Translations under genes and position numbers: made by a program
The notes under the pieces: model-generated
Database searches by the model: none
Seen by the model: the letters and a program-made list of their open reading frames with translations, nothing else
Told to the model about the DNA's origin: nothing
Shown: one piece after another, positions 14,902 through 59,108 of the stretch
How the letters are laid out: every line of letters starts with the position of its first letter
How positions within the stretch are numbered: position 1 is the stretch's first letter
Origin: Paralichthys olivaceus
Lineage: Eukaryota > Chordata > Actinopteri > Pleuronectiformes > Paralichthyidae
Direction: 5' to 3'
Length of the DNA stretch: 64,000 nt
Assembly (NCBI RefSeq): GCF_024713975.1
Contig: NC_091094.1
Coordinates: 12,881,001 to 12,945,000, forward strand

Positions 14902-17900
14902 ATGTCTCAGCTCCAGTTTCAGTGTCCATCTAGCCCCATGCCGGCTGCACCTGCCCCACTGCAGCTGGGGCAGCCACAGCCCGGTTACAGCATCCCCTGT
15001 GCCTCAGGCACCTTACCCTCAGAGAGTGCGAGCCAGCCCATCAGGAGCTCCGCCCTCCCTGCAGGCTCTGCCACCCCCTACAATACCACAGGTTTGTTTG
15101 TTTAGAATTTGTGTTTCTCCTTTTTTACATGAAATCTATAGTTTGGATGAGCTGTAAAGTGTCACCTCTTGTTCAGGCTCTAATATTTGAGGTAAATACC
15201 ACATTTTTTAAATTCTCCAAATAGTTCAAAGTACGTATGTGTTAGATTCTTTCTTCACATCTGACATTCTGTCAGTGAAGTGATATCTGCATCTTCTAGA
15301 CATTATGTTGAATTTAAGTTAAATATTTAAAATGTTATGCTAAATGTCAAACGTTCATAATATCTCTCAAGACTGTTTGTGTATTTGTTCACAGACTTTA
15401 GGACAAGATTCAACCATTCATGCTTGTGTTGACAATCATATCCATTTGCTTAGATGTGAAAATTTGGGATCTTTTTATGTTGTTATAGTATCTAACATGG
15501 CAAACCCTAAAGAGAAGACCCCCATGTGTTTGGTGAATGAGTTAGCCCGTTTCAACAAGATCCAACCTGAGTATAAGCTGCTTTGTGAGCAAGGACCTGC
15601 TCACTCCAAGGTATGTTGAGAGTAACATTAACAAACTAGCCTATAATGTGATTTCATCTGTGCTGTTCATTTGCAGTAGGTTCATGTCAGTGAGTCAGAA
15701 TTGATTTTTCTCTGTCTCTGCTTTGGTCAGATTTTCTCAGTGAGACTCACACTGGGAGATCAGCACTGGGAAGCGGAGGGGACCAGCATCAAGAAAGCCC
15801 AGCATTCCGCTGCCGCTTCTGCCCTCGCTGAGACAACGCTTCCCAAGCCCACCATGAGGACACCCCGCAACACAGGCAAGAACCCAGGTGGGCGGTTCCC
15901 ACTGTATCTGTCACAGTCTCTCTCACTGTTATGCTTTGCAGAAAGGGCTTACTCATTTGTATTCTTTATCTTTGGTGTGTTGGGCTTGTAGTAGATGGCA
16001 TGACACACACTATGGAGTTGAACGCACTATGTATGAAGCTTGGTAAAAAGCCTATGTATAAACCCATCGACCCATACCCGGGGATGAGACCACCAAACTT
16101 CAACTACAACGTCCGAGCTCCAGGGCCGTACCAACGCTCTATGCAACAGTGAGTTTCCTTTACTTGGAAATAGAATGAGGGCATTTGACTATGTGAACGT
16201 CATTGAGTCTCTTTGAGATGGAAAAAATTGATTCTCGTGTATGTCCAGGTACTATTACCCATTTCCTCCAGTGGGACCGATGTTATATCACATGGAGCTT
16301 TCCATTGGAGGTCAGCAGTTTGTTGGAAAGGGACGCACGCGGCAGTTAGCCAAACACGACGCTGCTGCCAAGGCCATGAAAGTGCTGCAGAAGGAGCCAA
16401 TATTGCAACAGTTGCCAGTGGTGAGAAAAGAAGCACAAGCACACTCTGCATAAGATAGTGTGAGAAACCCTCTGTGCAATTCTATTCAGACTTATTGCTT
16501 GTCTCTCTTTAATATACATTCTGCTGTTGACAGATGAATGGAGAGCCGGAGGAGGAGAACCTCAACAAATCAGAAATCAGTCAAGTTTTTGAAATAGCAC
16601 TTAAACGCAACTTACCTGTCAACTTTGAGGTGATTCCCACATTTCTTTTGATAAACTTTGATAAAATTAGCAATACAGTTTGAGCTGTGATGTTTTGGAC
16701 AGTTACAGTTTTTGTTCTTCAGTGTGAACTTTTTGTGTATGAACCAATACTGAAACAACACATGTGCCCAAGAAACAAGAAGTCAACTAAGACATCTGCA
16801 ATTTGTGCAAATTGCGTGTTATCCTATATTGATGTAAACCTGCTCAAATTAAAGCTGAGAATTGGGAGTTGTATATTTTATTTTATTTAATACCTTGAAG
16901 AACAAAAATTAAGAATTGGTTAATTGTCCAGACTGTATATATACAAAATGCATGACTTCCCCTGTTTCTTTTTCAGTTCAGTTTTAGAAGATCAGTGCTT
17001 TCCTGCACCCTATTCTGAGAGTAATTTGAAAACCCTGTGTTTCAAGGTTTTAAAGGAAGAGGGCCCTCCACACATGAAGAGTTTCTTAGTGTGTGTTACA
17101 GTCGGGGAGTTCACTGGCGACGGCGAGGGAAAGAGTAAAAAGATTGCCAAGAAGCTGGCGGCAGCAGCAGTGCTGATGGCGTTGAAGAGGCTACCCCACA
17201 TACCTAGCGTAGAAAAGACGTTGCCACGCATCAAAAAGAAAACCAAATCCATTATCAAGGTAATGATTCTAATGGGTTGGCATGAGGATAATCAATACAA
17301 ACCTAAAGATGCTTAATTAACTTGTCACACCAACAGCTGCAGACCAGCCCAGAGTATGGTCAGGGCATGAATCCCATCAGCCGCCTGGCCCAGATCCAGC
17401 AGGCCAAGAAGGAGAAGGAGCCGGAGTACAGCATGGTGACCGAGAGAGGTCTACCACGGCGCAGAGAGTTTGTCATGCAGGTGAGTCTGTAGTAAATGTC
17501 CCTGTAGTACGACTTACGGCTCTGTTTTCTTTTGCCTGTACATTTGTCTCCCATTCAGCTTTTGAGCTGTGTATGCTGTGTTCTGTGGCACAGGTGACCG
17601 TGTGTGGCCAGTCTGCCGAGGGACTGGGACCGAGCAAGAAGGTGGCAAAGAGGAACGCAGCCGAGAAAATGCTGGACCTCTTGGGATACAAAGTGCCTCA
17701 GCCTCAGCCCCCAAAACCGGCACTAAAAACTGACGAGAAGGTACAGCCAGACCTTTGACAAGCAAGTCTTATACACATGGTAAACCTTCATGTACTTACA
17801 GTGTTTTGAAATATTTAGACCCCAGTGAAAAAACCTGGTGATGGGCGTAAAGTGACCTTCTTTGAACCTGGCTCCGTAGAGGACATGGCACTGAGTGAGT

Positions 17901-21228: not shown

Positions 21229-22316
21229 CTATGCAACCTTAATGCAGCCATTAGACGCCTGTTTCTTGGTATCGATGAAGGGGTACATGCACTTGTCGGA
21301 GCCCATGAAACGATACACAACAACATTGGATTCCCACGGCAACAACCTGAAAAAGAACATGTGCAATGGGCTGATTAGAGAAATTCTCCAAAGAAGACGT
21401 ATTTATGTGAAGCCGTGGCTTTGCACTTACGCTCTAGAGAGGAAGGGGAGGTAGGTGAGGCGAGGGATGCACACCAGTGGTTGGTCTATCAAGATGGCGT
21501 TCATTGCCTGCTCAACGCAGTACTGGGGCTCCAGAGGGGGGAGCAGCAGTTCCACCTCCTCCCTAAAAGCACCAAAGTACTTTGATGAGTCAGTGTGGGA
21601 TTTTTGACAGCAAACACATCTAAATCTAAACATAGTTTGCCGGTGTGATGGACGGCCACTTCATTCAGCTATCAACTACTCGTTCTTCACTTGGAGGCAA
21701 TGCATTTGCATAGTGAACATTCTGCTAATATTCGAAGCTTAATTACTGTTATATGTTGGTATATTGGTATGAGTTGGTGAGTTTACAGGCAGATACAATA
21801 GCCTACTTGACTTAACCTAGTTTGTTAGTCAGTCCATTCAAAAAGCAAAATGGCAGGTTGAAGTAAAGCACAATTGTCATACATGATTATTTTGTGGACG
21901 TACCGTATCTTGCAGCCTTCAAACATGCCTGTTTCTACAATATAGGGACAAACAAGTGTAGTCTTCACTCCTTCAATCTCCTCTGCCAGAAGCTCATGGG
22001 CCAGAGACTCATGAAAACCCACTGCAGCAAACTTACTGGCACAGTAATCCTGTCACAAACCAAACACAACACTTTTCTTTCTGTTTGCATGATGTGCGTA
22101 TGACTTAGTTACATGTTGTAAACCTGTTCAGAGAGATGTGTCACAGAGTTTCACAGGAAATCATTCATATCTTAGTGATGCAGGGATTTGTTCTCCCCAC
22201 CAAACCGGTTCACCTCAACGCAAGCTGTGCTGAAGAGGCCGAGGACGCTGGCGATGGTCACGATGTGACCGTGATTCTGGGCCTTCATCTGGGGGAGGAA
22301 GGCTTTCGCTGTCTGA

Positions 22317-22363
<47 letters not shown>

Positions 22364-23678
22364 ACACACACACACAGACGTTTGTTTGTTTTGCAGTATG
22401 AGGCGACAGTGTTCACATTACTTGCAGAGACTTAAATATTGCTCAATGTGAAGGAAGATTATGTTGCAAGAGCAGCTTCATATTAAGAGGATTTCTATGG
22501 GAATCCTATAGCACGTACAGGGTGAAGGGGATAAAGCTTTTAACATTATATATTTGACATGTGATGTGTCAGACTGTACACTATCCTGCTTTGTTTGGCT
22601 GATGATGGAAAATATCTTGACTTGAATCGGTGCTGAATTATTGTCCGTGCTGGAGTGAGACAATGAGCCATACCAGCCCTGGCTATAATGGTTTTTACTG
22701 GGTGGCTGTGGCTCAGGAGGTGGAACAGAAGTTCGGTAGTTCGATCCCTGGCTCCTCTTGTCTGCATTATAAAGTGTCCTTGGGCAAGATGCAGAGTCCT
22801 CAAGTGCCCCTGATGGCTGTGCTCACAGTGTATGTGTGATACAAAAAGTGCTGTGTATAGAAGCCTTGTGTGAATGTGACTTGTACACTTAAAATGGTTG
22901 ATAAAACTGTAAAGGTGCTATACAGTCATTTACTAACAATGCCACATACTTTTTGATGTTCTATAGAACCGATTCACCAAAATTACAAAATATAAAATGT
23001 TGCCAGCTGCACAAACGTCTAGTATTACTGTCACTTCCGATTGTATTTTCCTTTGCAGTTATAATGAACAAGACACTGCAGATAATCTACAGATAATGGA
23101 CTAAAAAAATATAATAATTTGACAATAATTACTGTAAGATATATTCAAATCAGTTTTCAAGCCCTCTCTTCATCATGCATCACTTCATCCCTACGTCAGT
23201 GCCACATTGACTTGAGAGATCTCACCCAGAAGAGGGCGTGACAGTTGACTTTCATGGTCTTCTCAATCAGTTCATCGGGACAGTCTAACATGCGCTCCCC
23301 TGCCACCACTCCGGCGTTGTTCACCAGTATCGTAACATCTCGGCCCAGGTCCTTCCTCACGAGCTCTGCGTTGCGGTACACATTCTCCCTATTGGTCACA
23401 TCCACCGTGTAGGTGTGCGCCTTGCCCCCCATCTCATGCACCAGCTTGGCTGTCTGCTCATTGGAGCTGCTGTTGATGTCCCACAGCACCACCTCTGCCC
23501 CATGCTTGGTGAATTCCTGAGCAAAGAGACGACCCAGGCCTCCTCCTGCACCAGTGATCAGCACCAGCTCACCATCAACAGGCTTGGTGCGTGGGCGAAG
23601 GAAGACCCGCACAGAGTTACGCAAGATGAAGTAAATCACATCCAGCAGCATCATCTGGAGGTCCATTAGAAAAATCAT
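21229..23678 (-). CDS. rdh10: Retinol dehydrogenase 10 family (short-chain dehydrogenase/reductase)
   Basis: RDH10 is a membrane-bound SDR that oxidises all-trans-retinol to retinal, the first step of retinoic acid synthesis. There are five minus-strand exons: 23678-23226, 22312-22214, 22049-21904, 21562-21431, 21346-21229 (stop TAG), with consistent phases, giving 315 aa. Visible parts are an N-terminal hydrophobic anchor ([17 protein letters not shown]), the cofactor motif [12 protein letters not shown], catalytic Ser in TIAS 13 residues before Tyr, [15 protein letters not shown], and the RDH10-type tail [19 protein letters not shown]. Human RDH10 has 341 aa; the difference is mainly an insertion between the first beta strands that is absent here. 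The ATG at 23678 was chosen by alignment to the family; an in-frame ATG at 23783 also exists. SDR16C5 is the next-best family, but the C-terminus favours RDH10. Which rdh10 paralogue this is cannot be settled here. Confidence 0.9.
22315..22378. repeat. (CA)n microsatellite at an rdh10-like splice acceptor
   Basis: About 59 nt of CA/AC dinucleotides (22318-22376), with one GA interruption near 22359. On the gene strand it reads as (TG)n and ends 3-4 nt before the exon-2 acceptor TCTCAG at 22313-22318. Confidence 0.95.
22701..22933 (+). repeat. tRNA-like SINE, family D, copy 1 (in rdh10-like intron 1)
   Basis: The head GGTGGCTGTGGCTCAGGAGG resembles a pol III A box and is followed by GGTAGTTCGATCCCTGG, a good B box. 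The body contains GTGTCCTTGGGCAAGAT and CCCCTGATGGCTG. The end is AAGGTGCTATACAGTCATTT. It matches 51841-52109 in order. Confidence 0.75.
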
Positions 23679-23824
23679 TTTGATCTGATGCTCCTGACAA
23701 GATGTATGTGTATAAAATGAATTAGGCTTCACACCTGTGTCCTCCTGCCTCCAAATGTTAGGATGTGTGATGCAGACAGCCAAGCTGGTGTTTCTCTCCT
23801 GTGACCCTAACCCTCCAACCTCGG

Positions 23825-26595: not shown

Positions 26596-29500
26596 ATGCC
26601 AGGTTCAGGTCTGAGGAGCAGCGGCTCCGTCACGTTGCTTTGTCTCGGTGTGTTTGTGTTCCATGCCGCTCCGGGCCGGGCGGACTGCCGGGCCGCGGGC
26701 CTGTGCTGCTCCGGCCGCGACCCGTCCTGCACCAGTGAGGGCTGGAGGTCTGACCGCTCCTACGGCCCCTGCTACTGCGACCAGGCCTGCGTCTCCACCC
26801 GGGACTGCTGCCACGACTATGAGGCCGCCTGTCCGGGTAAATATCTCAGGAACTTCTATATAGTGGACAAAACATGGACAATTACAAACTAACAAATCAC
26901 AATTCCAACACACTGATTTGAAATAGTTGGTAAAACACGTGGGTTGAATTTGTTTTTAAAGGAAATTCACCAAATCATATCAGACATTATCTTTTATTGT
27001 TTACACATGTCAGTGTTTTTTAATATTATATATGAATATTCATATTTAAAAAATCATACTCTTTCAAAAACTTCCATCTCGTGTGATCCACCGGCTCCAG
27101 AACACAACAAATGTCTTCTCATTGAATTTTAATTCTTCTAATATATATTAATGTATATAATGTTTTTACATTATATACATTAAAACAGCTTTTCAACAGA
27201 CAAACAGATTTTAGGGCTATTTATAATTTATATTTTTTCAGTAGCTTCCATGTCATATGGCCCACTGACTTCAGACCAATGCCTATCTCATATTATTATT
27301 CTAGATAACAAGACGCTCTGGTTTTGATTGGATTTTCGTGCTTCACATATTTTTAATAATCGTATTTTTTTAAATAGCGTCCATGTGACTTTTAGTTCAG
27401 AGTCAGTCTGGAGGTGTGTTCTATTTGCCTATGGCAGCAATAACATCTGATATGATTTGGAGTCAGTGAGTCACATGAGATGGAAGCTATTGAAAACAAG
27501 GAATTATAGATGATCCCTAAATGAACTGGATGAATACATCCTTAGTGATCTAGTACTGTAATATACTATGAGTCCAGAGACTTGATCTCTACTGAGAGCT
27601 GTATTAGCTGAAATAAATAAATAATATCTGATTCTTCAGATGAAACAATCAAACAGGTTATTGGACCCACATTCTAAGTGACAATATTCAGATTTGTCTT
27701 GATCAATATATGTAATGAAAACTAATAGTCAATAATATTACTGTAAGTTTATCCTCTGGTGTTTGTGCTCGGTCTCTTTTCTCTCAGCGGTGTCCTGCGT
27801 GGTGAGTGAGTGGACGGAGTGGTCCGGCTGTGCTGAGCCGTGCAGGGCCACAGTTCGCAGGCGGAGCAGGGTCATCGTGCAGGAGCCGCTCAATGCAGGG
27901 AAACCCTGTCCCCATCTGGAGGAACACGCTGGCTGTGCAGAGTACTGGTCAAATCACGGGAACTGTCACAGCTCACTGGGTGAGAAAATATCCAGCTGGA
28001 TTCTTTTACAACATTTTCTAAACCGTACTCATAAGATATCATTATCAAATCCTTTTGACAAAGAAATTTGACTGAAGCTATAGATATTTAACTGATAAAC
28101 CATAAACCAACTTTATCATAACTATAAATATAAAGAAAACACAAACTGACAAATATAAATTAGGATTTTTTTCTGCACTGTTTATTCTGTAAAGTAACAT
28201 TTTTAATGTTGGTACATAAAGATAAAAATAAACACAGATATGTCTGTGAAAGACGCCAACTGATAAAACTGTCAGGTTAGACATTTGATTATCACTTCAC
28301 TATCCACATGTAAATAACTGATTAGGAGATTAGAAGAAATGTTATTATACATATGACTCTTTAAGTCATATAAGTCATTTAAGTTTTGGTCCTTTCAAGG
28401 AAAATATTCAGTGATCACGGATACACTTTTCTATTTCTGCTTTGTTGTCACACAGTGTTAGATTGTAGAAATGTAGACTTAATGAATATTAAGTTATGAT
28501 AATCCCACATCTGTCGTTACTTATCATTGAATGAAAATGGATCATAAAACTCAATAAGATGCTAAATCCCAAGTGCAGATTTCCAGCTTCTGTCATGCAA
28601 ATATGAAACATTTCTAGAATCCTATTTTTATGTGCATTTAACCAAAACATGTACATTTCATTTTAAATGTATGAGACCCATCTTGCAACATATGGTTTCA
28701 TGTAATGGTCTCATGATGGATGCTCCCTCTGCAGTTCCAGCTCTTATAACCACAAGTGGCTATGGCAACACGAGGAAGAAAAGAGACATCCTCGACAGCG
28801 GCGACATTATCGGGTAAAACCTTCTCTAGGATCAGTGAAATGTGAAATTACAGTCTATTTATTTCTGATATTTTCTCTCATATGTATTTAGCTTTGTGTG
28901 TGTATGTGTGTGTATGTGTGCGTGTACGTGTGTGTTTAAAATAGGTATTGTGTCCAGTTTCAGTTGACCTCTCTGACAAAAGGGTGCCAGGAGAGTCTGG
29001 GCCCACACACCCAGTGGATGCAGTACCTGAGGCAGGGCCACCATGTGTGTGTGAGGTGCCAGCCGCCTGCTCTCGCTAATGGGCAGCAACACTGTGCTGG
29101 AGACGGTGAGGAAAACACAGACGACAGGTAAGAATGTAAAGAATGGAGAACATGATTCATAATGATGTGGCATCAAGAAAGTTTTCTATCAATATAGCAC
29201 CATTGTGACATCACTGTTCTGACACAGTAGAGCTGCCTCACAGCGAGAAGGTTCTGGGTTCATAGCCGCTGGCTGGTTGTTGTGCTGGTGTGTGGAGTTT
29301 GCATGTTCTCCGTGTCTGTGTGGGTTTTCACTTGGTACTCCCATAGTTCATGTGATACACTGGCGACTTGTCCTGGGAGTGTACCCCGCCTCTCGCTCTG
29401 CTGATTGGCTACACCCCCCCACAGCCCTCAAAGCATAAGCTGTTTAGAGAATGGATGGATGGATGAACAAGTCACTGCTTGTTTTAAAATCTGCCTCAAA

Positions 29501-30583: not shown

Positions 30584-30604
30584 TTGCCTCCTTCCCTCTA
30601 ATGT

Positions 30605-44700: not shown

Positions 44701-47700
44701 CAATTAAGGGAGCGTATTGCTTGATAACATACGTATGTCCTGTTATCATCACCATCGTGGGCTGTGTCTAACTATACTTGGTTTGTCGACTGACATGTTG
44801 GATGTCAGCGTGTTATTAATTCAGCTATTGTAGAAGCTAAAAAAATGGTTTCTCTTTTTTAATGGAGAAAATGAATGAACCAGTTCACTTTGTTAATTTG
44901 TTGCCACTTTAATATCATTTTGGTTTTAAAACCAGCAAAATTAACTTTTTTTTCAAACATTATAGGCCATCATCATAGAATACACTACAGGCAATCCTGT
45001 GAGTGGCTTCTGCTTCTTTTTACTCGTTTGTTAATTGATTTAGTTGTAAAATGACCTCCTGTTATTGGTCTGGAAAAAAACTATCCAACTAAACTTTTTA
45101 TACTGTAAAAGATCCAATCCATGGTTCAGTTTGATCAGGACCAAGACCATCGCTCTAGTCACACTAAACTGAAAAATCCACAAAGCAGGTGTGACACATT
45201 TGAAATATTCTGTCGTTGAAAACATTCGATTTTCATAATATTGGAAGATGTAGATATGTGGGTGTTAGTGGCAGTATTCAAATCATCAGCAACATTTAAT
45301 ACTGCAGGCATCCCTCTGAAAATAACTATTTCCAATATGTAGCGCCCTTAAACACACTGTATGTTGAGGTCATAGAAAAGTCTGAAAGAGCCATTTTGGG
45401 GGCATTCAACAAACTTTACACTAACTCGTAGCGCTTGCATGCACAAAGTGCACCACAACTCGATTCAGCAAACCACAAATGTTGGTAGGAAATCTATGCC
45501 TGGACCATCCATCTCTTGAATGAATCCCACCTCATCTCCTCTCCCTCTCAATTATTCATGCATTTCAGATGAAGAAGAGAATCCAGACTCAGCATCTATA
45601 TTTAAACTCTGGCTGGTCCACGGTGGCTGTATAAATAGAAACAGTATAGGGTCTGGTCTGGTGCACCAAAGGATGCAGTTTTCATCAGGAATTTCCACTC
45701 AGAGGACACAGCATTTATGAGGACTGGAGAGAGATGAAAATACCTTCGTCAGTGTTGTGTAGAGACATTTCAGGAATGAGGAAATATCATATAGAGCAAT
45801 AATAGAGGTGAGGTAATATGTGGAAAAGCTTCATCTATTTCCACTGTTTCTTGAATACCATCAAAATCTCATCTTATCGCCATGGTATAAATTTCACACT
45901 GCATAAAAACAGTGTTGGCACAAATATAGCGGCAGGTCTGTCATATTGTTCAGGAATATTGCTTCCATATTGTCTAATAATAAATGTATGATGCAGTTCA
46001 TGCAGTCTTACAGTCTGTATGATAGTGTCTTTATTACAGAAATCAGAGATTGTCATGGCAAAAGGCTCCTCCAGTCTGCATGTCAATGTGTCCTGGGTAA
46101 GCTGCGGAACCTCAAATTGGCCCTGATGCCTGTGGCGTCAGTGTGTGAATGTGATGAATGAGTGACAGAGATAGCGACAGAAAGGCTGTATGAATGGGTG
46201 AATGTGATTTGTAGTGTAAAGAGCTTTGAGTCGCTGTTGAGCCTAGAAATACAGGATATAAGTGCGGTCCATTTATCCTCCACAGACAGGGAAAATGTAG
46301 TCATGAGAGAGGCAACAGTTTGAAATACGAAGAAGGATGGAGACAGAGAAAGAAGCACCCATCATGATAAGGTTTCTCCCTCATGTTTGTGGATACTGTG
46401 TCTGTCTCTGTCCTTCGTACTTTCCACAAAGTTATTCGTTCACCTTTCTACAAAAACTTGTGGTAAGTGGAGTAAAATACACCAACAAAGACAGCTGTAA
46501 TAGCTGCCACTAAAGGAGCAGTGTCTGGAACTGTGAGTTCTGATTTATAGAGCGTGTTGTTCTCTGTTCACATAAATGTTCAAGATTTGTGGTCTTGCGA
46601 AGGGGGGTTACATTTGAGAGTAATGGGTACACAGCCTCTCTGCAGGGCCATGGCCACCATGTCTCGGGGACAATCTGCATTTGCATTGTCTGTGAGAAAT
46701 GGTAAAGAAGAGAAATCAAAGAATGGAATGGAGAGATTCTATGCTAATACTGGTCAGCAGCAGAAACACAACATAATATACTGTTGGTATATAAAGTGTT
46801 CTATATTCCTAATAGAGAACAAGGCCTGTGAGCTAATTAAGTAAGACGAGTTGAGCTGCATGGTGAAGTCTATGTGATGGAATGTAGAGTACAGTCAAAA
46901 AAGTCCAGTCCACTGTTCTCCTCTGCTGTGCTCATGCTTCACGGCTCATTTGCAAACAGTGCTTTAACAGTGATGCAAACACTCGTTAATGCTGTTGCTG
47001 CTGTAGCTCATCAGCACGTTTTGTAAAACCCCCTCTCCATCTATAGGGTCTGATCTTAAGTTACTCTGCAGGGAAGTGTATTACTGACACTCCTCAGAAT
47101 CAGTTATGCTCAGCCTGGTGGAAGCTTTATGCAAATGGAGGCGAGAGACCATACTAAAATTCACATGAAATAAATCCATTCGAAAATCAGTGGATGGACT
47201 GAAATGGTAAATGGTTTGTATTTATAAAGTGCTTTTCTAGTCTTGATAACCACGGCCGACCTTCTGGTTAGAGGATGCTCCTGCTCTGTCCCCTGAGCCA
47301 CAGTCGCCCCATGTTGATCATATTGACGCAGTTGAGAAAGTGCCAAATCCCATTTCTGATCCATTTGAATCCACAGCTGCACAAACTGAACCATGATGGT
47401 TGTTCAATTCTGGGTGTATTGTTTACTGAACAGATGATTTATAGCATGTGTAGTTTTTTATAGTGTGTGTTGGCAATGAGTCACCACATGCTATAAAAAT
47501 CACTCCTGGCATTGATTAAAACCTGTAAGACACATCTCTGTTCCTCAAAATTACTTAGAGGTATTTTCTATGGAAACGAATCCCTTTATAATGGCTTGTA
47601 TGTATCTCGACACCTTTGCCTCATTTAGTATTTGTGGAACTATGAATATGCGAATGAACTCTGTCTCTCAGCCCTGGTTGGTCAGAATCAGAATCAGAAA

Positions 47701-50700
47701 TACTTTATTAATCCCCGGAGCGAAATTCCAAATGATCCAACACTTAAAGAGAGACATTTTAAAAGAAAGTTAAGTATAAGGAAAGTATACAAAATGTAGA
47801 AGAGTATCGGGAACAGGCAGCACACAACTTCACGCATGCACACTACTCTTTGAAAAAATCCTGCCCGGTTTTCTGTTTTAGCTACTTCACTACACAATGG
47901 CAAGTTGTAATGTAGGAGTCATCCAGTAACCGACTCTGAAGACAAACAGGGAAATGTGCAATATTATGGTCAATCTATCAGAATGGTAGGCGTGTATCAC
48001 TCTCTACAACATTAGCATTAAGCATAACAGTAACAGATAACATGAGACTTCAGCTTGATTGTCAAACAGCTACTGTATAGCTACAGTGTTGATTTAAGAC
48101 TAATTTATGCTGCCTTAACATATGAAAAGAGATATGTCTGTTTCAAACAATATAACTGTCCGTCACTGCCCACATACTTACGCAAGAGTTTCTGGTGACA
48201 ACAAAAGTGGTGACGGCGGAGGAGGTTGTGATAATGTACCTCTTCAGAAAACTGCCTGTTTGTCCACGTGCTAAGTAACATCTTATAGATGCCTGTAGTT
48301 TCTTACCAAATTTGTCCCTTGTGTTCTATGATTGTCTCGCTTGAAACACTGGCTACCCTGCCCCGCAGGATTTCCTGTGTCACTGCTTGATTTCATCTGT
48401 CTTATCAGTATCTGTAAACTTTAACAAAATGAGCACAAAAACTTTATCAATACAGAGTATGTCTGTTTCTATATTAAATGTAGAGCATAAATGAGCTAGT
48501 GTAGCTAACGTAGCTTGCAAATTACCTATAATTTAAGACACTCCTCTGAAACCCCCGTCCATGTTAAAATCTAAAATTTGAGTTAATACATTGTATAGAA
48601 AACTGCACAGCATTTCAAGGCTTTTTTGTTCTTCTGTCATTTGTTTGAATTAAACTCTAACACCTTGACCCCAATGGTCTAAACCAAAGCAAAGCAAAAA
48701 AAGCAGCCCCTCATTCAATCTTTCATTCTGCAATGGGCTTCTGCACATTAGAATATCACAATCTTTAGGAGAGAGGATACAACTATGGCTTTCTTCAGTT
48801 GTACAATCAACAAAACCATTTTAAGTTTGTCTGTTTTTGTCTCAGGGTCCCTGCTGACTGTGAGAGAAGGTAACATTGTTTCTCAGTCTCCGAGCTCTTG
48901 AGTGTTGCTAAAACAACATCATTGTTTTACAGCATACCATGTCATGTGTTCCTGTATGATTCAGCAGCTGTGTCAGTTGATGAGCACTCCTCAGAGTTAG
49001 CACTGACTTGGGGAAACTGACGCAGAGTTTCAATATTAATCACTCACTCACAGACTTAGACAGTAAAGTTGTGACTCTTAAAGTGTAAATCTATTTGACT
49101 GTACAGTATGACCACTACGTCATGCCTCCAGTAAGATCAAAACTAGAGTGTCTTTAATAAAATATTTAACAGTATGCTGCAATGTTCCTCTTTTTACAAA
49201 GAAGGACGTATACATAACACATGATGTATATCCATGCTAAGGCTACACAGGTTAGTCACTTGTTTTTCTCATGATACATTTTGCAGTACAGAAAACGGAG
49301 ACAAACATTGAACCAGCCTCTTGCATTAGTCTTTTCTTCTCCAAGCTGCTAAATATTTTATGGTTATTTTAACTATACAGTACATTAGTACTCTCCTGTG
49401 AACAGCAGGGAATCTGTGTCCCAGAATATCTTTTGTTTCATTTCAGCATGTCTATTGAGATGCCTCTTGATGAGAATTTATTTCAAAGATTTGTGTTTTC
49501 AGTGCTGCACTTCTGTTTTCTTCTTTCACAGCAGAAACAAAATACCAACCAGATGCTTTTGTTTTTTAGCCTCTGGGAATGTGGATGATTGTCCCGAATA
49601 TGAGCCATTTGCTTGGAATTTAATCTGGTCCGAAGGCAACTCTCATCTGTGACACTCCCCATGAAAGTGATTATCAGAGGTCTCTCCACAAACTTTTCAG
49701 GTTATTCAGGTTCAACTGATTCTAACGTGTTAGGAGTTATGCAAGTTAGTTGAGAGACCATGTATCTCTGAACATTTTCCAGGTTCAAGATTTTTCTGGC
49801 ACTGAAGCACATTTTAGTATCTTAACTATGCTCTCACTGAACTCACATGAATACTTTGGAGGAGTCATCATAAATGCTGCTCATTCACTTTGAATGAGTT
49901 GTCTAACTGTGGTTTCATTGTGTCACGTTGCAGCTGAGCTCAACTTTAATCAAACCGTGTTTCAGCTAACACTCAAGCACGTTAATGGAGTCGGAGGCGG
50001 CTGGTTAAACTGGTGTGTGTTCATCTGATTGTGGATTTTATTCCCATGTACTTCTCTTTAGCATTAGCATGGTAGGTTAGCATGAAAGCTGGCTATGTTG
50101 TGTGTCCAAAGCATGAAACTGTGATGATCGTGCTGACACCATGCGTCAGACATGCCCACCAAGCACAATGCATATGGGTGAGTCTCGCGTTACATTCAGT
50201 CTACCATCAAATTAGTATTCTATACAATTTAGTATTTCTTTACTAAATTGAAGGAAGGAAAAATGTCCTGTATGATATCTGAATAAAAGCTCTTGATATT
50301 TATTAAATTAAATCAGATAAAGAGCTATATGAAAGCAGGCTAACGTATTAATCAGTCAGTTAAGTCGTTTTTTTTTATTAATAAAAGACTGAATGAAATG
50401 TGAAGGTCTAAACACAATAAACTGACCATAACAATTAACTGAGGAAGGAGGAAATTTTGAAATAGTCAAACAATAGTCAAATATATTTAAAAAATATTGT
50501 TGCATGGCTTTACAAACTCTATTCAATAGGAAATGGAAATTAGTCATAAGTCCTAAGTTGAACATTCAGCGATCGTTATCTGCTCGATTCTATGTCTCTC
50601 TTAGTCACAAACCTGTTTTCTTTCTCTCTGGCTCAGATTCAGCTTCCGTGTCTCACAGTAATTAGTTTACAATCTTTAACTCTCCAGATCTCTTCATCTA

Positions 50701-53700
50701 TCTCTGTGTTTTTTTCCCTTATGGTCTTTGCTCCTCAGGCTTTCCTCCTCTCTGGGGTTATGCGTTAGTGTCTTTTGCTCGATGCTCACATAACCGCTCG
50801 ATGCTAAATTGAATGAACAAAGGAGCTGTCTAGCTTTGCAGATGTGGAATACATTTTTTATTTCTAACTGATCTGTGCAATCACCTCTCTGCGTGAACTC
50901 CAGGATCGTTGCTCGGACCACACCTAAATTATTTATAACACACTTTTAACACAATTTTACAATTTTACCCAGAACATGTCCACTGAGATAAATTCTGCAA
51001 CAATAAATAGAGCAAAACAAACAAAGTCTGTATCTGTCTTCACCAAACTTTTCCTGCAGCAGTGACGCATGCTATGCTATGAGTCTGAAAGGCTGAGATG
51101 ACTCCACAAATACGGAGCTCTCCACTACAAAATACATGACATGACTTGTAAAATGCTCACAGACAAGACTCAACCACTAGATAATCAGACTTCTCCACAT
51201 TATTCATGAATGAGCTCTAAATTATGCAGCACAATGTTAAAACAACTACTGAATAGACTTTCCAAAAACCTCAGTCCAAGTTGTACCAATTTAAAATCAA
51301 AATGAAAACAAGAAGGAAATGATGGTAAAACTAATAATTATAATCTTAATAATTATCACTGAGCCTTAATCAACACACTTATTTTTGATCCCGTAATATA
51401 CACCTTATTAATCAAATGATAATTCCCACTACAAAGGTGCCTATATGCAGGGGCAGATCCAAAGGCCAGGGGGACGCCGGCCCTAGCTGAAATCTGATTG
51501 GCTCCTGAAGTGCCCCTGTTTTGAGAAAAGAAATGACTTGCACTTACCAACAATACTGACAGTAAATATGACAATTTGTTAATAATTAACAAGCTGACTT
51601 GGGATACAAAATGTATAGGAGGAACAATTAAATGCATTAAATTATGTTTTGCTTTGCTCAGAGCTATAAAGCTATTAGTAAACAAGGAATGACTGGAATG
51701 TTATTGAATCAGGAATCATGTTTGGAAGTTCTACATATAACTGGCCCCTCTGTGCAAATTGTGGCCCCTTTTTGGCCCCCAATTTAGAAAATCCAAGAAC
51801 TGCCACTACCACTATATGTATAAACCTCAGTTCCCTTATTGGGGGGCAGCTGTGGCTCAGGGGGTCAAGAGGGTTGTTCACTAGAGGGTCGGTTGTTTGA
51901 ACCCCGGGTTCTTCCAGCCTGCTCTCCTAAGTGTCCTTGGACAAGATACTGAACCCCAAATTGCCCCTGATGATTGCCGACAGTGTATGAACAGTGTGTG
52001 ATAGCACAAGCGTTGCATATGAAAGCTCTGTATGAATGTGTGTGAATGGGTGAACTGGCATTGTACAGCACAGAGTGAAAAGTGCTATATGACTACAGCC
52101 CATTTTCCAATTAATTTGCTTGTGTGTTTTCTTGTGACTGAGTCAATCTGAAATTAATCCTCCTCAAGGAGAAACATAGATTCTCAGGAGACCCACATGA
52201 CCTTTCAATCTTTTGCCACCATCCTCCCAAACGTTCTCTACTGAGCGTGTCTCCTGACCGAAGCGAAATGTTATCTATGCAGCCAAAAGAAAGAAACCCA
52301 CTGATACTGAGAATCCCATCACCTTTCCCACACTGTTACCATCTAGACAAACGTCTACTAATATTGAAAAATCTACCTACCATCCATCTGGCCAAAAGTT
52401 GGGTCGCTTTCTGACTCACAACTTTATTGGACAAATTGGAAGGATCAAAATGTCCAAATGTGTTTTTTTTTCAGTTTTGAAACGAAAACCTCAGTTAGCG
52501 ATTGGAGACATTAATCCTTTTCCCTTTGAATGTGCATGTTTTTAGGCTCTGTTAGTATTTTACAGTCACGGTTCTTATTTCAGCACCATTAATTAAATTA
52601 CTTACTTACTTTTACTCTGAATGTCTAAATATCGCCAGGCTTTCAGTCTGTCTGCATATAGGCAAGCCATTTATGTATGCCTGTGTAAAAGGTACATTAT
52701 AGAAAGAGAAATCAGAGACAGTGAGTTATATTTACACATTGAGCATTGTCATGAGAATCTATAATAAACTCCCAGGATCATATGTCACTACACCAGAAAC
52801 TGGGCGTTATGCAAATATAGGTGTGTGTGTGTTTGCTTGTGGACTCTTGATAGTGAAAACTGGTCATAGGTCAGAGCTGTTAATCAGTTCCCTTCCTCAT
52901 CTGTCTGTAAATCTATTCTTAACTGTAACAGATACACAGAATGAGGTTTGAGCTTATTTCGACTTTAACCTTCAGAGGTTACAGGAGTTTTTATAGCTGC
53001 ATTTGAATCTGACTTCGGGGCAAGTTAGACGAGACATAACCAGTCACAGGCACTGCTGTTGAAGAGAAGACAGTGTGACAGGCAGAGAAGGAAACCGACA
53101 TGAAAGCAATCGCTGAGTGCACATGATCCTGGCTTATATCTCTGCACCACACCAACCCAGACATAATGGACAAACAACCTGAGAAACCTGTGGTATGTTA
53201 TGTCCCCCCTTAATCCTCCTATCAAGCTCAAATTTGTGACTTCAGTATTGCATGGTCACACTGCAGCTTTCTGCCAGAGACACTCGACCCCCCCCCGGGT
53301 CTACCTCTTTCTCTCTGTGGTGTTTGCAACATACAAGACTTAAAGTCGGGGAACCTCGGGCCTCTGGGTTGTACACCACATATGAGACAATTTGATCCAG
53401 AGAAAGTGATTCAGAAATACGAATACAAATCACCTCAGGACAGCATTAATATTTTTTGAGAGCTAAAAGAGAATAGTAGACATGTCCTTCAGAGCGGTCC
53501 CTTCTGGTTGTCTGCCTGTCAGGTCATGGTCAGGTTGATGTGTGTTCCCAGAGAAAAGGACAAAAGACTATTGTTTTTGTCAAAGTAAAGGTCTAGGTTG
53601 AAGGGATGCACTCGCAGTGATGTAAAAGGTCAATCTCAAGAGTCGTTACAGCTGGAAACAAGCTAAACTGCTTGAGTTGAAAAGACAAATGTACTTTTAC

Positions 53701-56700
53701 AAGTTTAGAGTTCGGGTGCCCAACAAGCATCTTTCACAAAATCTCACTCTGATAGAGAAAATGCCATGTGGACAAGCTCGGTAGTGAGGGAGCTATTATC
53801 TAAGAAAATAAAACATCAATCAAAGGCAGAACTCTATCACACCATCTGTCAAGGATTTAGTAAAATGAAATGACCCTTGATAGGAAAAAGGTTATGGCTG
53901 ATATAGACACTTCACTGACACATACTGCAGTAATCAAGCATCATCCCAAACATTGTCTCCACCTACTTAAATGTTGGATGGGAACAACAAGTTTGACAAA
54001 GTGGGTAAATTATTCATTATTCAACTGTTCTGGGGACTTTAGAGATTAGAAATATACTTTACACTCTGTACATGAATAGGCAGAGTTTGTGTTTTTTGTC
54101 ATACATAATAGTTTACAATCATAGCCCCAGTCCTACACATATATTTCTTTTCTGTGGTAGATTGAGTATGATAGCTCATATGTTAATTATGATCATTGGT
54201 GACCTTGAAAGAACGAGTTCAGGTCTGGATCCTAATGAGGATATGAAGGCTATACTGAGTATGTGCATCTGACCCCGATGAGGGTGTCTAGCCTTGGTGA
54301 TGATTGCCTGAATACTCCAGCCTCTGCACAATAGTTTCATGGGATTTGGGAAAATGTGTCCAAAAGAAACCCACAGACAACAGGGCCCTTTAATATAGGA
54401 CACGCTTCTCTTTAGGAGATATTCCTTCTAAATATATGCAGATTGGATGATCCAGCCCCAACTGGGACACAGCATTCTCGACTCGCTGTACATTATTGTC
54501 CTGGTTGTGACTTTTCAGCTGTCAGATGTTGTGATAGATTCTAGTCTGGCATCTTCATGCCTTGGATTTGGCTGCAGACTGATTTATGAGCAGGAATACG
54601 GCCAAAGCACATTTATATGTCATCTTAAGTGTGACATGAGAGGAGCATAATTGGAATTTGTTGCCTGCCATCTGATGCACAATACCTCCTGACAGAGGAG
54701 GAAGTGGTATTTCTCAATTTTTTGGATGCATGGTGGACAAAAATGACAGCAACATTCATGTTCAGCTTGGGTTTCCTCAGATTTGAAGCCAAACTCAGTC
54801 CTAAAAATATGTGTAAACTATCTCAAATGTGATTTCCTAGGTGTGATGCATGTTTGATGTATCTCAGTGATGAATGTATGGGGTGAGGGAAAAAAATTTA
54901 CCTATGTCCTTGAAATAAAAGTTTCTATGGACACAGAGAATAAATTGGTGTGGCAGTATTTTATGACACTGAAAACAGAACTTCACCCTTGAAAGAATTC
55001 AGGGTAAAGATTTTCAGGAACTGCATCTTTAATTGTTCCTGAAGACAGTGAAATCTGGCTAATTGGCCATCATGGCTTTAGATTTACGGTTATATTCACA
55101 TGACATATTCTTGACAGAACTTCACCGTTTCAAACCCATGTATATTTGATTAAGATATGTCCTTTTTCACTGCCAAATAAATTTTACTTAAAATTGTAAA
55201 TCTTAGACTATAATTAGCCTAATGATATATATTTACATCACCACTTTTTAAATTCCTGCTTTTCTGAATGTGAGACTGTAAATGAAGATTATTGGCTTGT
55301 TACGTTTTATTCCCAGCCTCCTGTCAATCAGTTCCTGTATTAGTAATGACAGAAACCACTCAATCTCGGCTGTTGTTACATAAACACTACTGCAGGGGAA
55401 AAGAAGATTCTTGGCGCTGATCTTATGATCAGGAAGCCTCCTGCTTTGCCAGCCAGGGGTCAGACAATCTCATTTAATGGGGACTCAAATCTGATTTGAG
55501 CAAAAGACAGACAATGCTGTGGTTTAGAACGAGGAGGTAAACAGAAGGAAGCTTCAAATTGGGCCCGGAATCTCCAGGAGAATAATTAATGTGACATTTC
55601 CCTGACATTTAGTCTGTGGTATAGTGGAGGAGCCCGAAGACGGGGAGGAAGGAAGCGGAGCACATATGTGAACCTTTGAGGGAAAGAGAGAGACAGGAAG
55701 GACGACAGGGCCGAAAGAACACAGGCAGCCACGCCGACTCTTTGCTCCTGAAAATCTTGACAAATATTGCAGCTACAGTACAAACATTTAAATACAGGAA
55801 CCAAGCCGCAGTGTGCGGTTTTACACACACACACACACAGAAGCACAAATAGACCCACTTCAATACCTACTCCTTCAATGATGATAAAATTGTACTTTAG
55901 TTGCTTGGTAACAATTTGTTTTGTGCTCAACTCCAGCATCCACCATCTGCTTATGGTCTGTTTCACATACATTTCCATCTCTGACCCAGGATCGGCAGCA
56001 CAGCTGGACACAGCTGGGAAATGCTGTGGTCGAGGCTGGGCGGCTATTTAAAGTAGTTTGCTCTTCTTACTGTTTTAAAGCTGAATAGTTACTGATACAC
56101 TCTGCTTCTTACAGAGTCACTGTTTCTCTGCATCCTTTGCTGTAGTCTCTAAAAGAGATGATGAACACTTTAATGGTAATTACTGCACCCACACTCATCA
56201 ATGAGTAGCTATCGAGAACTATAGATTCACAGGAAACAATATGCACAAGCCCTTTGCTGCGTCATTATTCACAGTCACGAGCGCCCATCTTGATGAAGCA
56301 CTTCAAAACTGTTCTCCAGTGATATTTTGATATATTGCAGATATCAGGGCGCGATAATGGACACAGCAACGTATGGTTGAATCAGAGTGGTCATCTCCTT
56401 TTTGTAGGCTACAGCACTTTCTTAGCTCTAACACAATAGACATTGATTTTGCATCTATTTGATTCCCATGACGGAGACATTTCACTGACAGACTCGCAGC
56501 ACTCATCCCAGTCTGTTTGCGGTGTGTGAGCGCTGACATCTCTCACAGTAACCTGCACCATAACGGCTGCAGCCAGCACAAACTGCAAAGTTTAATTTCC
56601 ATTTTACAATCCTGATTGCTGGAAGCCAAAAAAGGCTCATTACAAAAACAGCAGTGGCAAAAAGACAGACTTCCTCTTTGATCCCTTCAATCCAACCAAG

Positions 56701-59108
56701 AACAGGGCGATCAAAGGCTGCTCATGTTTAACACTGCTGCGGTTTCCCAGGTTGCAGGTGTGGCTCCCTGAAAGGCCTGCTGAGGGCAAACTGTCTTTGT
56801 GCGCCAATAAACGTGGGAACAGCTGATCAAAGTCGACAAAAAAATTGGCCTTCAGATAATGAAATGATGTGCAGCACAGTGAGGATCTCAACATCGAATT
56901 ATGACCAGGGCAAAGGGACATGGCTCTTAAAAACTAAATGCAGGCTTAAGTGTTCATTCAACCAAATATCGCAATAGTGTTGACACACAATCAGGATTTC
57001 AATCCAGCAGTTCTTCTACCTGATTTCTTCTCTAATTTGCTTTGACCTATCAAGCTTGTCTGAGAGCCTCATATTTACTATATATTATGACTTAACTCCA
57101 CATTTATTAACTTACCCTTCTCTGGGTTTCTACATTCTTCTCTTGCTCTACTCTTTCATTTAAATATACCTACTATTACTGAAAGATCTTCCAAGTGCAT
57201 TTATCCAAATGTTTAAAACAATCCTGAATAACATATATGTTATGTATATTTAATTATATTAATGCTATTTATGCGAACTAACGTATAATTCAATATCCCG
57301 GCCTCAAGCAGAATATCTCAAATCAATTAAATCGACTCAGGATGACGCAGGAAGGGGTTGTCATAAACAAACAATTGACAAAATGCAGGGAATAGATATG
57401 TATAGATCATATTGTAAGAGAGGGCAGCTAGGAGACATTCCAATGACTTAATGGTGCACGACCAGTACATAAGTTTAAGAATAATGTGTGTTTGAAGGTG
57501 TTTTTGTTTGTTCTGCAGTGGAGAACAGATGGACATGTTTTCAAATGTGAGCTAATGAAACAGCAATGATAACATGAGCTTCACAAGGGCCAAAGATAAT
57601 GAGCCCTGTGTCAGGTTTTAAAGATGCTTCATTGTGATGCTTTCCCCGAGTCATTCTCCCTGTTACAAAACTCATCTGACTGTCATGACTCTCTAGTTTT
57701 TGGATAACAATAATGGCAGATAAAAGCAAAGACATCCCACACTGACAAATCACATCCACTGGCTTTTCCTATCATTCCCACTCTTCACCTTCTGCTCCAA
57801 CACTTGAGGAAATAAAACATAAGCAAACAGCAAAAGAAGAACATGTGGGTTTGTCCTGAATGTTGTGCAACCACACACTACATACAGTATGTAACATACT
57901 TCAATTTCACTCTTCAAAAACTCTTATTAGTGAAGAAATTGTAATCACCTGTATTCAGTTCACCATATTACTAACACAGCACTTGCACACACAGGCTCCT
58001 TTATGTTAGCCTTATTGATAAAGAACCATCATGCTCGAGAATCTTAAATGATAAGAGGTATAGATAATGGGTGGATGGATGGATGAACAAACAAGTCTCT
58101 GTAAAGCTGAAAGTGCTGCTGAATGCTAATATGCTCACAACGTTTAAGTGTTTTCCATGCCTGCCATCTTAGTTTAGCACGTTACCATTGTAACATTTGT
58201 ACTTAAGACTAAGTACAGTTGATGTACTGAAAATGTCCATCTCTGAGTGGCGCTAGGTGAAATGTCAGGGCATCCTACACAGTCAGATGATTTAGACATA
58301 TTTGCACCATGAATGTCAATCTCAAATGTCGTGGCAATCCAGCCAGTAACTGTTGAGACAGACTGACAGACCCACACTGCAATAGATCCACGCTGCTGAA
58401 AACATGTGTCTCTGTGCGTCTATCTTCGTGTGGCTGTGTACAGGCCTGTATAGACAATCATCACTGAAGTGTGAATATTTCCCCAACCAATCACACACTT
58501 ATCTCTTTCACATATCCACCAATGAAAATTACCTTTGCTGCAACGGATGAGCTGGGCTTTTCCAAGAGGTCCCAAAGTTTTTTCCGTTTTTCAGCACAGC
58601 AGGTGTTGTCAAATTCTTCCCCATCTCTGTCTTTTAAATTGTCAGCCTCTCTTTTCAGCTCCTCGTTCATTTGCTCCTTTTTCTGGTGGTACCTCGCCTG
58701 GCAACAGGACTCCAGGTAGATCTCATCAATTCCCCAGTAGTCGAGCTCTTGACTGAACGAGAGTGCGCACATCTCTTCCATCATGTGCAGCTTCCCTGTG
58801 CGGTAGAAGTTCAGAATTGATGTGAATGCCCCCGGGTGTCGGTCAAAGAAGTACTCGTTCTCCTCGAGGTTGTAGTCATCACACACTTCCATCAGAGATT
58901 CATGGGTGTTGCAGTCTCTTAACTTCCCCAAACGTGTTCGTGGTAGCCTGTCTAACGTTCGCCACAAGACCTCATGAGGGAGACCCCCTACATTCAGCCT
59001 GACTCTGCGGAAACATGTCTTGCTGCGCATTATGTCCACTGGTTCAGGTTGTAGCGAGGACATTGAGCGGGAGCCAGCTTTATTTAACTCAGCCAAGGAT
59101 TTCTCCAT
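35710..59108 (-). CDS. kcnb1: Voltage-gated potassium channel Kv2.1 (Shab type)
   Basis: This delayed-rectifier channel alpha subunit sits in the plasma membrane and also forms ER-plasma membrane junctions. Two coding exons, 59108-58533 and 37635-35710, join in phase to give 833 aa (human 858). The T1/BTB tetramerisation domain is at about 30-140 ([19 protein letters not shown], with C...CC zinc ligands). S1-S6 occupy about 193-415, with S4 arginines ([15 protein letters not shown]), filter TVGYGDIY and the S6 PIP hinge. A long C-tail carries the clustering motif [13 protein letters not shown] near 583-595. The C-tail decides for kcnb1 over kcnb2: [38 protein letters not shown] and the final DKSL fit Kv2.1. 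A 20.9 kb intron separates cytoplasmic T1 from the membrane part. The position beside ptgis matches human KCNB1. Confidence 0.96.
38477..38962 (-). mobile_element. PIF/Harbinger-like non-autonomous DNA transposon
   Basis: The 486 bp element is bounded by terminal inverted repeats (left AGCCTAGTTTATGCTTCTGC; the right end is its reverse complement) and flanked by TTA at 38474-38476 and 38963-38965, the 3-bp target duplication typical of PIF/Harbinger. The subterminal parts are packed with CTACGGCGTA/CTACGCCGTAG palindromes. It is GC- and CpG-rich against its surroundings. On the minus strand, 38770-38504 is open for 88 codons. Its start ([18 protein letters not shown], then [13 protein letters not shown]) resembles the N-terminus of fish Harbinger transposases, so it is probably a deletion derivative. 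The transposase catalytic domain is absent. Confidence 0.8.
40132..40487 (+). mobile_element. MITE-like repeat, family C, copy 2 (full length)
   Basis: The terminal inverted repeats are visible: left AGGTCCAGTGTGTAAGATTT, right ACACACTGTACCTTTAAG, whose reverse complement is CTTAAAGGTACAGTGTGT. The core contains CCTCTCTACGGAGGCCGCCA. It is about 355 bp and non-coding. The other copies are at 30745-31031 and 59377-59640. Confidence 0.75.
41665..41735 (+). repeat. Family E tail fragment
   Basis: CCCCCCACAACCCTCAAAAG, then GGTATAGATAACC and ATGGATGGGTGGATGAATGA match the 3' end of the repeat at 29222-29467. The 5' part is missing, a pattern expected of truncated retroposition. Confidence 0.55.
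43050..43102. repeat. AT-rich palindrome
   Basis: ATAATATATATATATAATTATT followed by its near mirror complement can form an AT hairpin. It is probably a simple-sequence expansion. Confidence 0.7.
46090..46276 (+). repeat. Family D SINE, copy 2 (3' part)
   Basis: It contains GGCCCTGATGCCTGTGGC, then GAATGGGTGAATGTGA and TAAGTGCGGTCCATTTATCC, corresponding to the body and end of the SINE at 51841-52109. The tRNA-like head is missing. Confidence 0.6.
47204..47310 (-). repeat. Family D SINE-related fragment, reverse orientation
   Basis: GGTAAATGGTTTGTATTTATAAAGTGC and, at the right end, GTCCCCTGAGCCACAGTCGCCCC read on the minus strand as the head (GGGGCGACTGTGGCTCAGGG) and end of a related element. 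It is internally deleted. Confidence 0.55.
47684..47740 (+). repeat. Dispersed repeat tail (family F)
   Basis: AGAATCAGAATCAGAAATAC, then TTTATTAATCCCCGG and AGCGAAATTC form the well-known fish dispersed-repeat tail. Only a short piece is present. Confidence 0.6.
51841..52109 (+). repeat. tRNA-like SINE, family D, fullest copy
   Basis: The head GGGGCAGCTGTGGCTCAGGG includes an A-box-like TGGCTCAGGGGG, followed by TTGTTTGAACCCCGG, a B-box-like segment. The body is GTCCTTGGACAAGATACTG, CCCCTGATGATTG, GTATGAATGTGTGTGAATGG. The end is AGTGCTATATGACTACAGCCC. It is non-coding. The same elements occur at 22701-22933. Confidence 0.75.
55820..55842. repeat. (AC)n microsatellite
   Basis: A short ACACAC tract within the kcnb1 intron. 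It makes a spurious frame on the minus strand and is otherwise unremarkable. Confidence 0.8.
58020..58090 (+). repeat. Family E tail fragment
   Basis: TAAGAGGTATAGATAATGGG followed by TGGATGGATGGATGAAC matches the end of the repeat at 29222-29467. Only the 3' tail is present. Confidence 0.5.

What the first reader, a model, noticed from the sequence alone, without database searches (positions are those of the whole stretch)
14902..59108. stau1 / rdh10-like / sbspon-like / kcnb1 is the sister block of human STAU2 / RDH10 / SBSPON / KCNB2
Seen: four adjacent genes with orientations + - + -. The stau and kcnb members are clearly stau1 and kcnb1 (20q13 type). Known: on human 8q21 KCNB2, SBSPON, RDH10 and STAU2 lie in this order with orientations + - + -, which is this window read in reverse, while human 20q13 has STAU1, KCNB1 and PTGIS but no RDH10 or SBSPON. 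Inference: the window keeps the complete ancestral block on the stau1/kcnb1 copy, including rdh10 and sbspon ohnologues that human 20q13 lost. These would be duplicates easily mistaken for the plain orthologues.
Basis: partly seen in the sequence, partly recalled or inferred. Interest (0 to 1): 0.75.

Follow-up and report, generated by a model that had tools for sequence, protein, structure and literature searches.

The report
Second vitamin-A enzyme block in fish
This fish chromosome keeps a sister copy of a four-gene block, including an extra retinol dehydrogenase gene and an extra secreted-protein gene that appear to date from the whole-genome duplications at the origin of vertebrates and to be missing from the matching human region.

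Summary
Confirmed. The window carries open models of stau1 (+), rdh10-like (-), sbspon-like (+) and kcnb1 (-) at the stated place. Contig C17 of the same genome holds the mirror block: kcnb2 (+), sbspon (-), rdh10 (+), a second staufen (-); 4 of 4 families, same order and orientation. The window rdh10-like protein is 57% identical to C17 rdh10 and groups with another rdh10-like gene outside C17 rdh10 plus human RDH10; the recent-teleost-copy topology is rejected (p-AU 0.005; 0.038 without one recalled outgroup). So rdh10-like and sbspon-like are best read as 2R ohnologues of the 8q21-type genes. Limits: human RDH10, SBSPON and DHRS3 sequences and human gene order are recalled; sbspon could not be rooted; the C17 staufen is stau2 mainly by position; no gar, shark or tetrapod genome could be searched. 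A new member of a well-known kind.

The parts
14902..19176 (+). stau1, 14 exons, 691 aa
   Evidence: Gene model, 13 of 13 introns GT-AG; STAU1 over STAU2 in dsRBD4 (55 against 49 of 70), STAU1 structures 6htu and 4dkk; Pfam dsrm x4 and Staufen_C
21229..23678 (-). rdh10-like (rdh10l), 5 exons (23678-23226, 22312-22214, 22049-21904, 21562-21431, 21346-21229), 315 aa; TGAG, NNAG and YCASK motifs present
   Evidence: junction 3/4 shifted by one base to meet GT-AG; same protein; Pfam adh_short; motifs; tree
26596..30583 (+). sbspon-like (sbsponl), 5 exons, 270 aa, TSP1 and SBSPON_C domains
   Evidence: 24 of 25 cysteines of (recalled) human SBSPON kept
35710..59108 (-). kcnb1, 2 exons (59108-58533, 37635-35710), 833 aa
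   Evidence: KCNB1 9o10; Pfam Kv2channel; C-terminal tail 45.0% to human KCNB1 against 25.5 and 26.1% to the C17 and C16 kcnb genes
290..10616 (+). polybromo-like gene (bromodomains, HMG box), left flank; limits approximate, from open frames
   Evidence: two of its frames scanned; one further copy at C2:17,676,271
62941..63315 (-). open frame holding the 3' end of a ptgis-type gene (prostacyclin synthase), right flank
   Evidence: 3b98, E 6.2e-12; next 7lyx, a 12-alpha-hydroxylase, E 1.4e-10; typed on about 50 residues

Best explanation
The window is the 20q13-type (stau1/kcnb1) member of a block of at least four genes that was duplicated in the early vertebrate genome duplications. Its rdh10-like and sbspon-like genes are 2R ohnologues of RDH10 and SBSPON, not teleost-specific copies. 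The teleost genome duplication then doubled both blocks. The two 20q13-type copies now share contig C2: the window kept stau1 and sbsponl, its partner at 17.62-17.70 Mb kept cse1l and a second rdh10l. The 8q21-type block survives whole on C17; of its partner only a second kcnb2-type gene on C16 was found. Shown: gene content, order, orientation, typing of stau1 and kcnb1, and the rdh10 tree. Inferred: the timing, the loss on the human line, and the function. Inferred function: rdh10l is a membrane-bound SDR16C dehydrogenase that turns retinol into retinaldehyde, with cofactor and catalytic motifs present; sbsponl is a secreted matrix protein.
For: Same genome, C17: kcnb2-type (+) exon 2 at 5,294,616; sbspon (-) 5,307,234-5,310,335; rdh10 (+) from 5,327,287; staufen (-) 5,390,148-5,421,431: the mirror image of the window, 4 of 4 families and orientations. 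The C17 staufen gives no match to query residues 458-691, a part that window stau1 shares with human STAU1 (4dkk), so it is not a plain second stau1. rdh10l: 56.7% to C17 rdh10 and 59.2% to recalled human RDH10, while those two are 81.4% identical. UFBoot 96 for the rdh10l pair and 100 for C17 rdh10 plus human; FastTree 0.98-0.995. The two rival topologies lose 19.5 log units, p-AU 0.0050 and 0.0048 at 10,000 resamplings. 20 of 20 runs with 5 or 10% random errors in the recalled rows still reject both. At 45 columns where human and C17 RDH10 differ, window rdh10l sides with human 13 times, with C17 5 times, with neither 27 times. rdh10l lacks an insert of 23-25 aa and an intron of C17 rdh10; the three outgroup rows lack the insert too. 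Window sbsponl is less like C17 sbspon (45.6%) than like recalled human SBSPON (51.6%).
Against: Human RDH10, SBSPON and DHRS3 were recalled, not fetched. Without DHRS3 the rejection weakens (p-AU 0.038 and 0.002). Fixed differences between rdh10l and RDH10 are not polarised by outgroups (12 against 12); the SDR16C5-like outgroup row is partial (231 columns). SBSPON has no outgroup, and human SBSPON is equally far from both fish copies (51.6 and 51.5%). A 38-residue piece of the C17 staufen is as close to STAU1 (33) as to STAU2 (32), so it is called stau2 mainly by position. The KCNB1 pair and human KCNB1 are an unresolved trio: site patterns 5/4/3, tails 47.6/45.0/44.3%, and two FastTree runs place the second kcnb1 outside window plus human (0.902, 0.868), which does not favour a 3R date for the second block. 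Two 3R partners on one contig is unusual.
Confidence: 0.9

Rival explanations
1. rdh10l and sbsponl are teleost-specific (3R or later) copies of the 8q21-type genes that came to lie beside kcnb1 and then evolved fast.
For: Only one fish genome was searched; rdh10l branches are longer than the RDH10 branches; without DHRS3 this topology is rejected only at p-AU 0.038.
Against: Both genes would have to land between stau1 and kcnb1 in the order and orientation of the C17 block. AU test with all rows. rdh10l sides with human over C17 at 13 against 5 of 45 columns. A second kcnb1 block also carries rdh10l.
Confidence: 0.07
2. The two C2 blocks are two different 2R copies, or an old segmental duplication inside one chromosome, rather than teleost 3R partners. 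(This concerns the second block and leaves the 2R reading of rdh10l intact.)
For: Both lie on C2; window kcnb1, second kcnb1 and human KCNB1 are about equidistant, and FastTree joins window and human (0.868, 0.902 for the same split).
Against: stau1 was found only in the window and cse1l only in the partner, while human 20q13 has both (recalled): reciprocal loss after a late duplication. A kcnb2-type gene is also doubled, on C17 and C16.
Confidence: 0.3
3. The window rdh10-like gene is another SDR16C member (DHRS3, SDR16C5 or HSD17B11/13 type).
For: All share the fold; a review gives RDH10 and DHRS3 54% identity (PMC7022914, passages seen).
Against: rdh10l joins RDH10 at 0.98 (FastTree) and 98 (UFBoot) against the four outgroup rows; it shares 37 of 81 RDH10-specific columns and the RDH10 C-terminal tail.
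Confidence: 0.01

Closest known systems
Human 8q21 block KCNB2-SBSPON-RDH10-STAU2 (recalled) and its counterpart on C17
   Same: Same four families, same order and relative orientation (C17)
   Different: STAU1/KCNB1-type members; RDH10 member 57% identical, without the 23-25 aa insert and its intron; flanked by ptgis-type and polybromo-like genes
Human 20q13 CSE1L-STAU1-DDX27-ZNFX1-KCNB1-PTGIS (recalled)
   Same: stau1, kcnb1 and ptgis in that order; cse1l in the partner block
   Different: rdh10l and sbsponl between stau1 and kcnb1; stau1 opposite in relative orientation to (recalled) human but as in the 8q21-type block
Fish rdh10a/rdh10b (zebrafish, PMC4578954, passages) and the Nile tilapia rdh10 set (PMC8073704, section 6 and passages)
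   Same: Extra rdh10 genes in fish are known; tilapia has three, with rdh10-b twice on LG5
   Different: Tilapia rdh10 is not in that paper's list of 2R duplicates, and the LG5 pair is called a tilapiine tandem duplication; whether those are rdh10l was not checked

Membership tests
2R ohnologue of RDH10/SBSPON | Sits in a paralogous block beside ohnologue pairs (stau1/stau2, kcnb1/kcnb2) | tested here: met
   the C17 staufen is typed mainly by position and by lack of a STAU1 C-terminal match
2R ohnologue of RDH10/SBSPON | rdh10 duplication older than the fish-tetrapod split | tested here: met
   AU tests with a recalled human row
2R ohnologue of RDH10/SBSPON | sbspon duplication older than the fish-tetrapod split | tested here: inconclusive
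   No outgroup; identities 51.6, 51.5 and 45.6%
2R ohnologue of RDH10/SBSPON | Present beside stau1/kcnb1 in gar, shark or a tetrapod | not testable with these tools
   No other vertebrate genome was available to search
STAU1 | Closer to STAU1 than STAU2 in a dsRBD, with the SSM-dsRBD5 C-terminus | tested here: met
KCNB1 (Kv2.1) | KCNB1-type C-terminal tail | tested here: met
RDH10 (SDR16C4) | Joins RDH10 rather than other SDR16C members; SDR motifs present | tested here: met
RDH10 (SDR16C4) | Insert of 23-25 aa after about residue 84, with an intron in C17 rdh10 | tested here: not met
   Absent in both rdh10l, present in C17 rdh10 and recalled human RDH10; so a sister of RDH10, not RDH10 itself
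RDH10 (SDR16C4) | Retinol dehydrogenase activity, control by DHRS3 | not testable with these tools
   Needs enzyme assay
SBSPON | TSP1 and SBSPON_C domains, SMB-type cysteines | tested here: met
   TSP1_spondin and SBSPON_C above cut-off, Somatomedin_B below it; 24 of 25 cysteines

The most novel reading that the evidence does not exclude
Vertebrates began with two RDH10-type retinol dehydrogenases. The second, rdh10l, lacks the RDH10 insert, survives in ray-finned fish (twice in this genome) and was lost on the line to humans, perhaps in the same rearrangement that turned STAU1 round and put DDX27/ZNFX1 next to KCNB1. It would give fish a retinaldehyde source that may work outside the RDH10-DHRS3 control complex.
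Probability: 0.3. Interest if true: 0.6.

Novelty: new member of a known kind. Interest (0 to 1): 0.42.

Why it matters
RDH10 makes the retinaldehyde from which embryos make retinoic acid. If fish carry a separate, 2R-old RDH10 lineage, fish genes labelled rdh10 need sorting into orthologue and ohnologue before knockouts are compared with mouse or human. The block is also a clean, ordered example of a paralogon in which the human side (from recall) lacks two of four genes.

Tried and rejected
Rejected: DHRS3 or SDR16C5 identity for the rdh10-like gene. Recent teleost copy. The C16:22.937 Mb match as a third rdh10: it groups with HSD17B11/13 and not with RDH10, is SDR16C5-like by recall, and served as a partial outgroup row.

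Led nowhere: a solved-structure search with a cse1l fragment gave no match, so cse1l was named from Pfam CAS_CSE1, Cse1 and IBN_N. A 200-replicate bootstrap timed out; its alignment was used. Typing the C17 staufen on its dsRBD4 piece was undecided. KCNB trees could not date the second C2 block. Paper searches: rdh10a/rdh10b (25 of 9,588 listed), kcnb1/stau1/rdh10/ohnolog (1 paper), rdh10 with sbspon (3 papers), rdh10 with ohnolog (none), rdh10/sdr16c5/phylogeny/teleost (12 of 22 listed), kcnb1/stau1/synteny (none), pbrm1l (6 of 134 listed). No title or abstract start in these listings names this ohnologue; only open-licence PMC papers are covered and I saw listings, plus the four papers named in the report.

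Full report
What is there. The window is contig C2:12,881,001-12,945,000 of a 588 Mb genome in 25 contigs. Open models were built for all four genes: stau 14902-19176 (+), rdh10-like 23678-21229 (-), sbspon-like 26596-30583 (+) and kcnb 59108-35710 (-). To the left lies a polybromo-like gene with bromodomains and an HMG box, to the right the end of a ptgis-type P450 gene (prostaglandin I2 synthase best, a CYP8B-type enzyme close behind).

Typing. The stau protein matches human STAU1 dsRBD3-4 (6htu, E 5.6e-83) and SSM-dsRBD5 (4dkk, E 3.8e-55). In dsRBD4, the one domain with a STAU2 structure in that list, it has 55 of 70 identities to STAU1 and 49 of 70 to STAU2. The kcnb protein matches KCNB1 over residues 7-805 (9o10); its C-terminal tail is 45.0% identical to human KCNB1 and 25.5 and 26.1% to the kcnb genes of C17 and C16. 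Pfam finds the expected domains; the Somatomedin_B hit of the sbspon-like protein is below the curated cut-off.

The sister block. Searches of the own genome gave: rdh10 (first 152 residues), 7 matches at 5 places, 23 of 23 candidates scored; sbspon, 21 matches, 50 of 50 scored: 5 in the window gene, 4 on C17, and 12 elsewhere that all fall in residues 74-176, mostly the thrombospondin repeat; kcnb (exon 2), 60 matches, 69 of 76 candidates scored, of which four stand out (the window, C2:17.65, C17 and C16) and the next are at about 50% over the channel core; stau, 22 matches, 30 of 30 scored, in the window gene, in one gene on C17 and one weak hit on C10. On C17 they line up as kcnb (+) 5.295 Mb, sbspon (-) 5.307-5.310, rdh10 (+) 5.327-5.337 and staufen (-) 5.390-5.421. 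This is the mirror image of the window and, from recall, the human 8q21 order. The C17 kcnb has a tail only 25.5% identical to human KCNB1 and pairs with C16 kcnb (FastTree 1.000), hence kcnb2-type. The C17 staufen gives no match to query residues 458-691, where window stau1 matches human STAU1; a 38-residue piece of its dsRBD4 is undecided (33 identities to STAU1, 32 to STAU2) though it carries the STAU2-like SERGM. So one genome holds both blocks, four families each; the name stau2 rests mainly on position.

Trees. C17 rdh10 is 81.4% identical to recalled human RDH10. The window rdh10-like protein is 56.7% identical to the first and 59.2% to the second, and 67.5% to the second rdh10-like protein at C2:17.66 Mb. 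Outgroups were the SDR16C5-like gene of the same genome (partial), HSD17B11 and HSD17B13 (from PDB) and DHRS3 (recalled). On 314 columns the rdh10-like pair (UFBoot 96) lies outside C17 rdh10 plus human RDH10 (UFBoot 100); FastTree, on the full alignment, gives 0.98-0.995. The topologies that make rdh10l a sister of C17 rdh10 or of the human gene lose 19.5 log units; p-AU is 0.0050 and 0.0048 at 10,000 resamplings (one search gave 0.00097 and 0.0012 at 1000, with a warning that these are too few). With 5 or 10% random errors in the recalled rows, 20 of 20 runs reject both (p-AU at most 0.0103); without DHRS3 the values are 0.038 and 0.002. At the 45 columns where human and C17 RDH10 differ, the window protein agrees with human 13 times, with C17 5 times and with neither 27 times; the second copy 16, 7 and 22. 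A gene born in teleosts should share C17 states. Results against: columns fixed between the two clades are not polarised by the outgroups (12 against 12). For sbspon there is no outgroup: window to human 51.6%, C17 to human 51.5%, window to C17 45.6%. This argues against a recent copy but does not say which fish gene is the human orthologue; the neighbours do.

A structural difference. C17 rdh10, like recalled human RDH10, has an insert of 23-25 residues after about residue 84, interrupted by an intron in C17. Both rdh10-like proteins lack insert and intron; the three outgroup rows lack the insert. The following three exons have equal lengths (99, 146 and 132 bases) in the window gene, its C2 partner and C17 rdh10. 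The simplest reading is that the insert arose on the RDH10 line after the split; loss in rdh10l is not excluded. The TGAG, NNAG and YCASK motifs are present, so the inferred function is retinol oxidation at membranes. Whether DHRS3, which controls RDH10 (PMC7022914, passages seen), also controls rdh10l is unknown.

A second 20q13-type block. At C2:17.62-17.70 Mb lie ptgis (+), a KCNB1-type gene (+), rdh10-like (+), cse1l (-) and a polybromo-like gene (-). Read in reverse, this is the window without stau1 and sbspon and with cse1l. stau1 was found only in the window, sbsponl only in the window, an 84-residue cse1l piece only here, and the polybromo HMG region at both places (100 and 91%; six other matches at 36% or less). 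Reciprocal loss of this kind is what the teleost duplication leaves. Against a 3R date: the KCNB1 tails of the two fish copies and human are about equidistant (47.6, 45.0, 44.3%), FastTree places the second copy outside window plus human (0.902; 0.868), site patterns are 5/4/3, and both blocks on one contig is unusual.

Relation to what is known. The 8q/20q paralogy of KCNB and STAU genes is recalled textbook matter. Fish rdh10 duplicates are known: rdh10a/rdh10b in zebrafish (PMC4578954, passages) and three in tilapia, of which rdh10-b is called a tilapiine tandem duplication, two copies on LG5, and rdh10 is not in the list of 2R-derived duplicates (PMC8073704, section 6 in full; passages). 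Polybromo duplicates pbrm1 and pbrm1l are listed in tilapia (PMC9454494, passages). In the listings no title or abstract start describes an rdh10 or sbspon ohnologue beside stau1/kcnb1; the listings were partial (25 of 9,588 and 12 of 22), only open-licence PMC is covered, and gene databases may already label these genes rdh10-like.

Human side (recall and inference). Human 20q13 has CSE1L, STAU1, DDX27, ZNFX1, KCNB1 and PTGIS. In the fish window and in the 8q21-type block stau and kcnb point towards each other; in human 20q13 STAU1 and KCNB1 are both on the minus strand. The human interval between them is thus rearranged where rdh10l and sbsponl are missing, which suggests one event, untested.

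Verdict. It is a new member of a known kind, of moderate interest.

Noticed in passing
C2:17.62-17.70 Mb (L008-L015): A second, reduced copy of the window block (ptgis, kcnb1-type, rdh10-like, cse1l, polybromo-like) lies 4.7 Mb away on the same contig, with reciprocal gene loss.
   Followed up: partly
C17:5.327 Mb (L018) against window 23226-23678: C17 rdh10 has an insert of about 23 aa with an intron that both rdh10-like genes lack.
   Followed up: partly
C16:22,505,375 (L049): A second kcnb2-type gene; no sbspon or staufen match on C16, and the only rdh10 match there is an SDR16C5-like gene 0.43 Mb away.
   Followed up: partly
C4:6,810,981-6,811,274: A weak sbspon-like match (30% over residues 75-176), longer than a single thrombospondin repeat.
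   Followed up: no
PMC8073704, tilapia LG5: The rdh10-b pair called a tandem duplication in tilapia may be the two rdh10-like loci that share one chromosome here.
   Followed up: no
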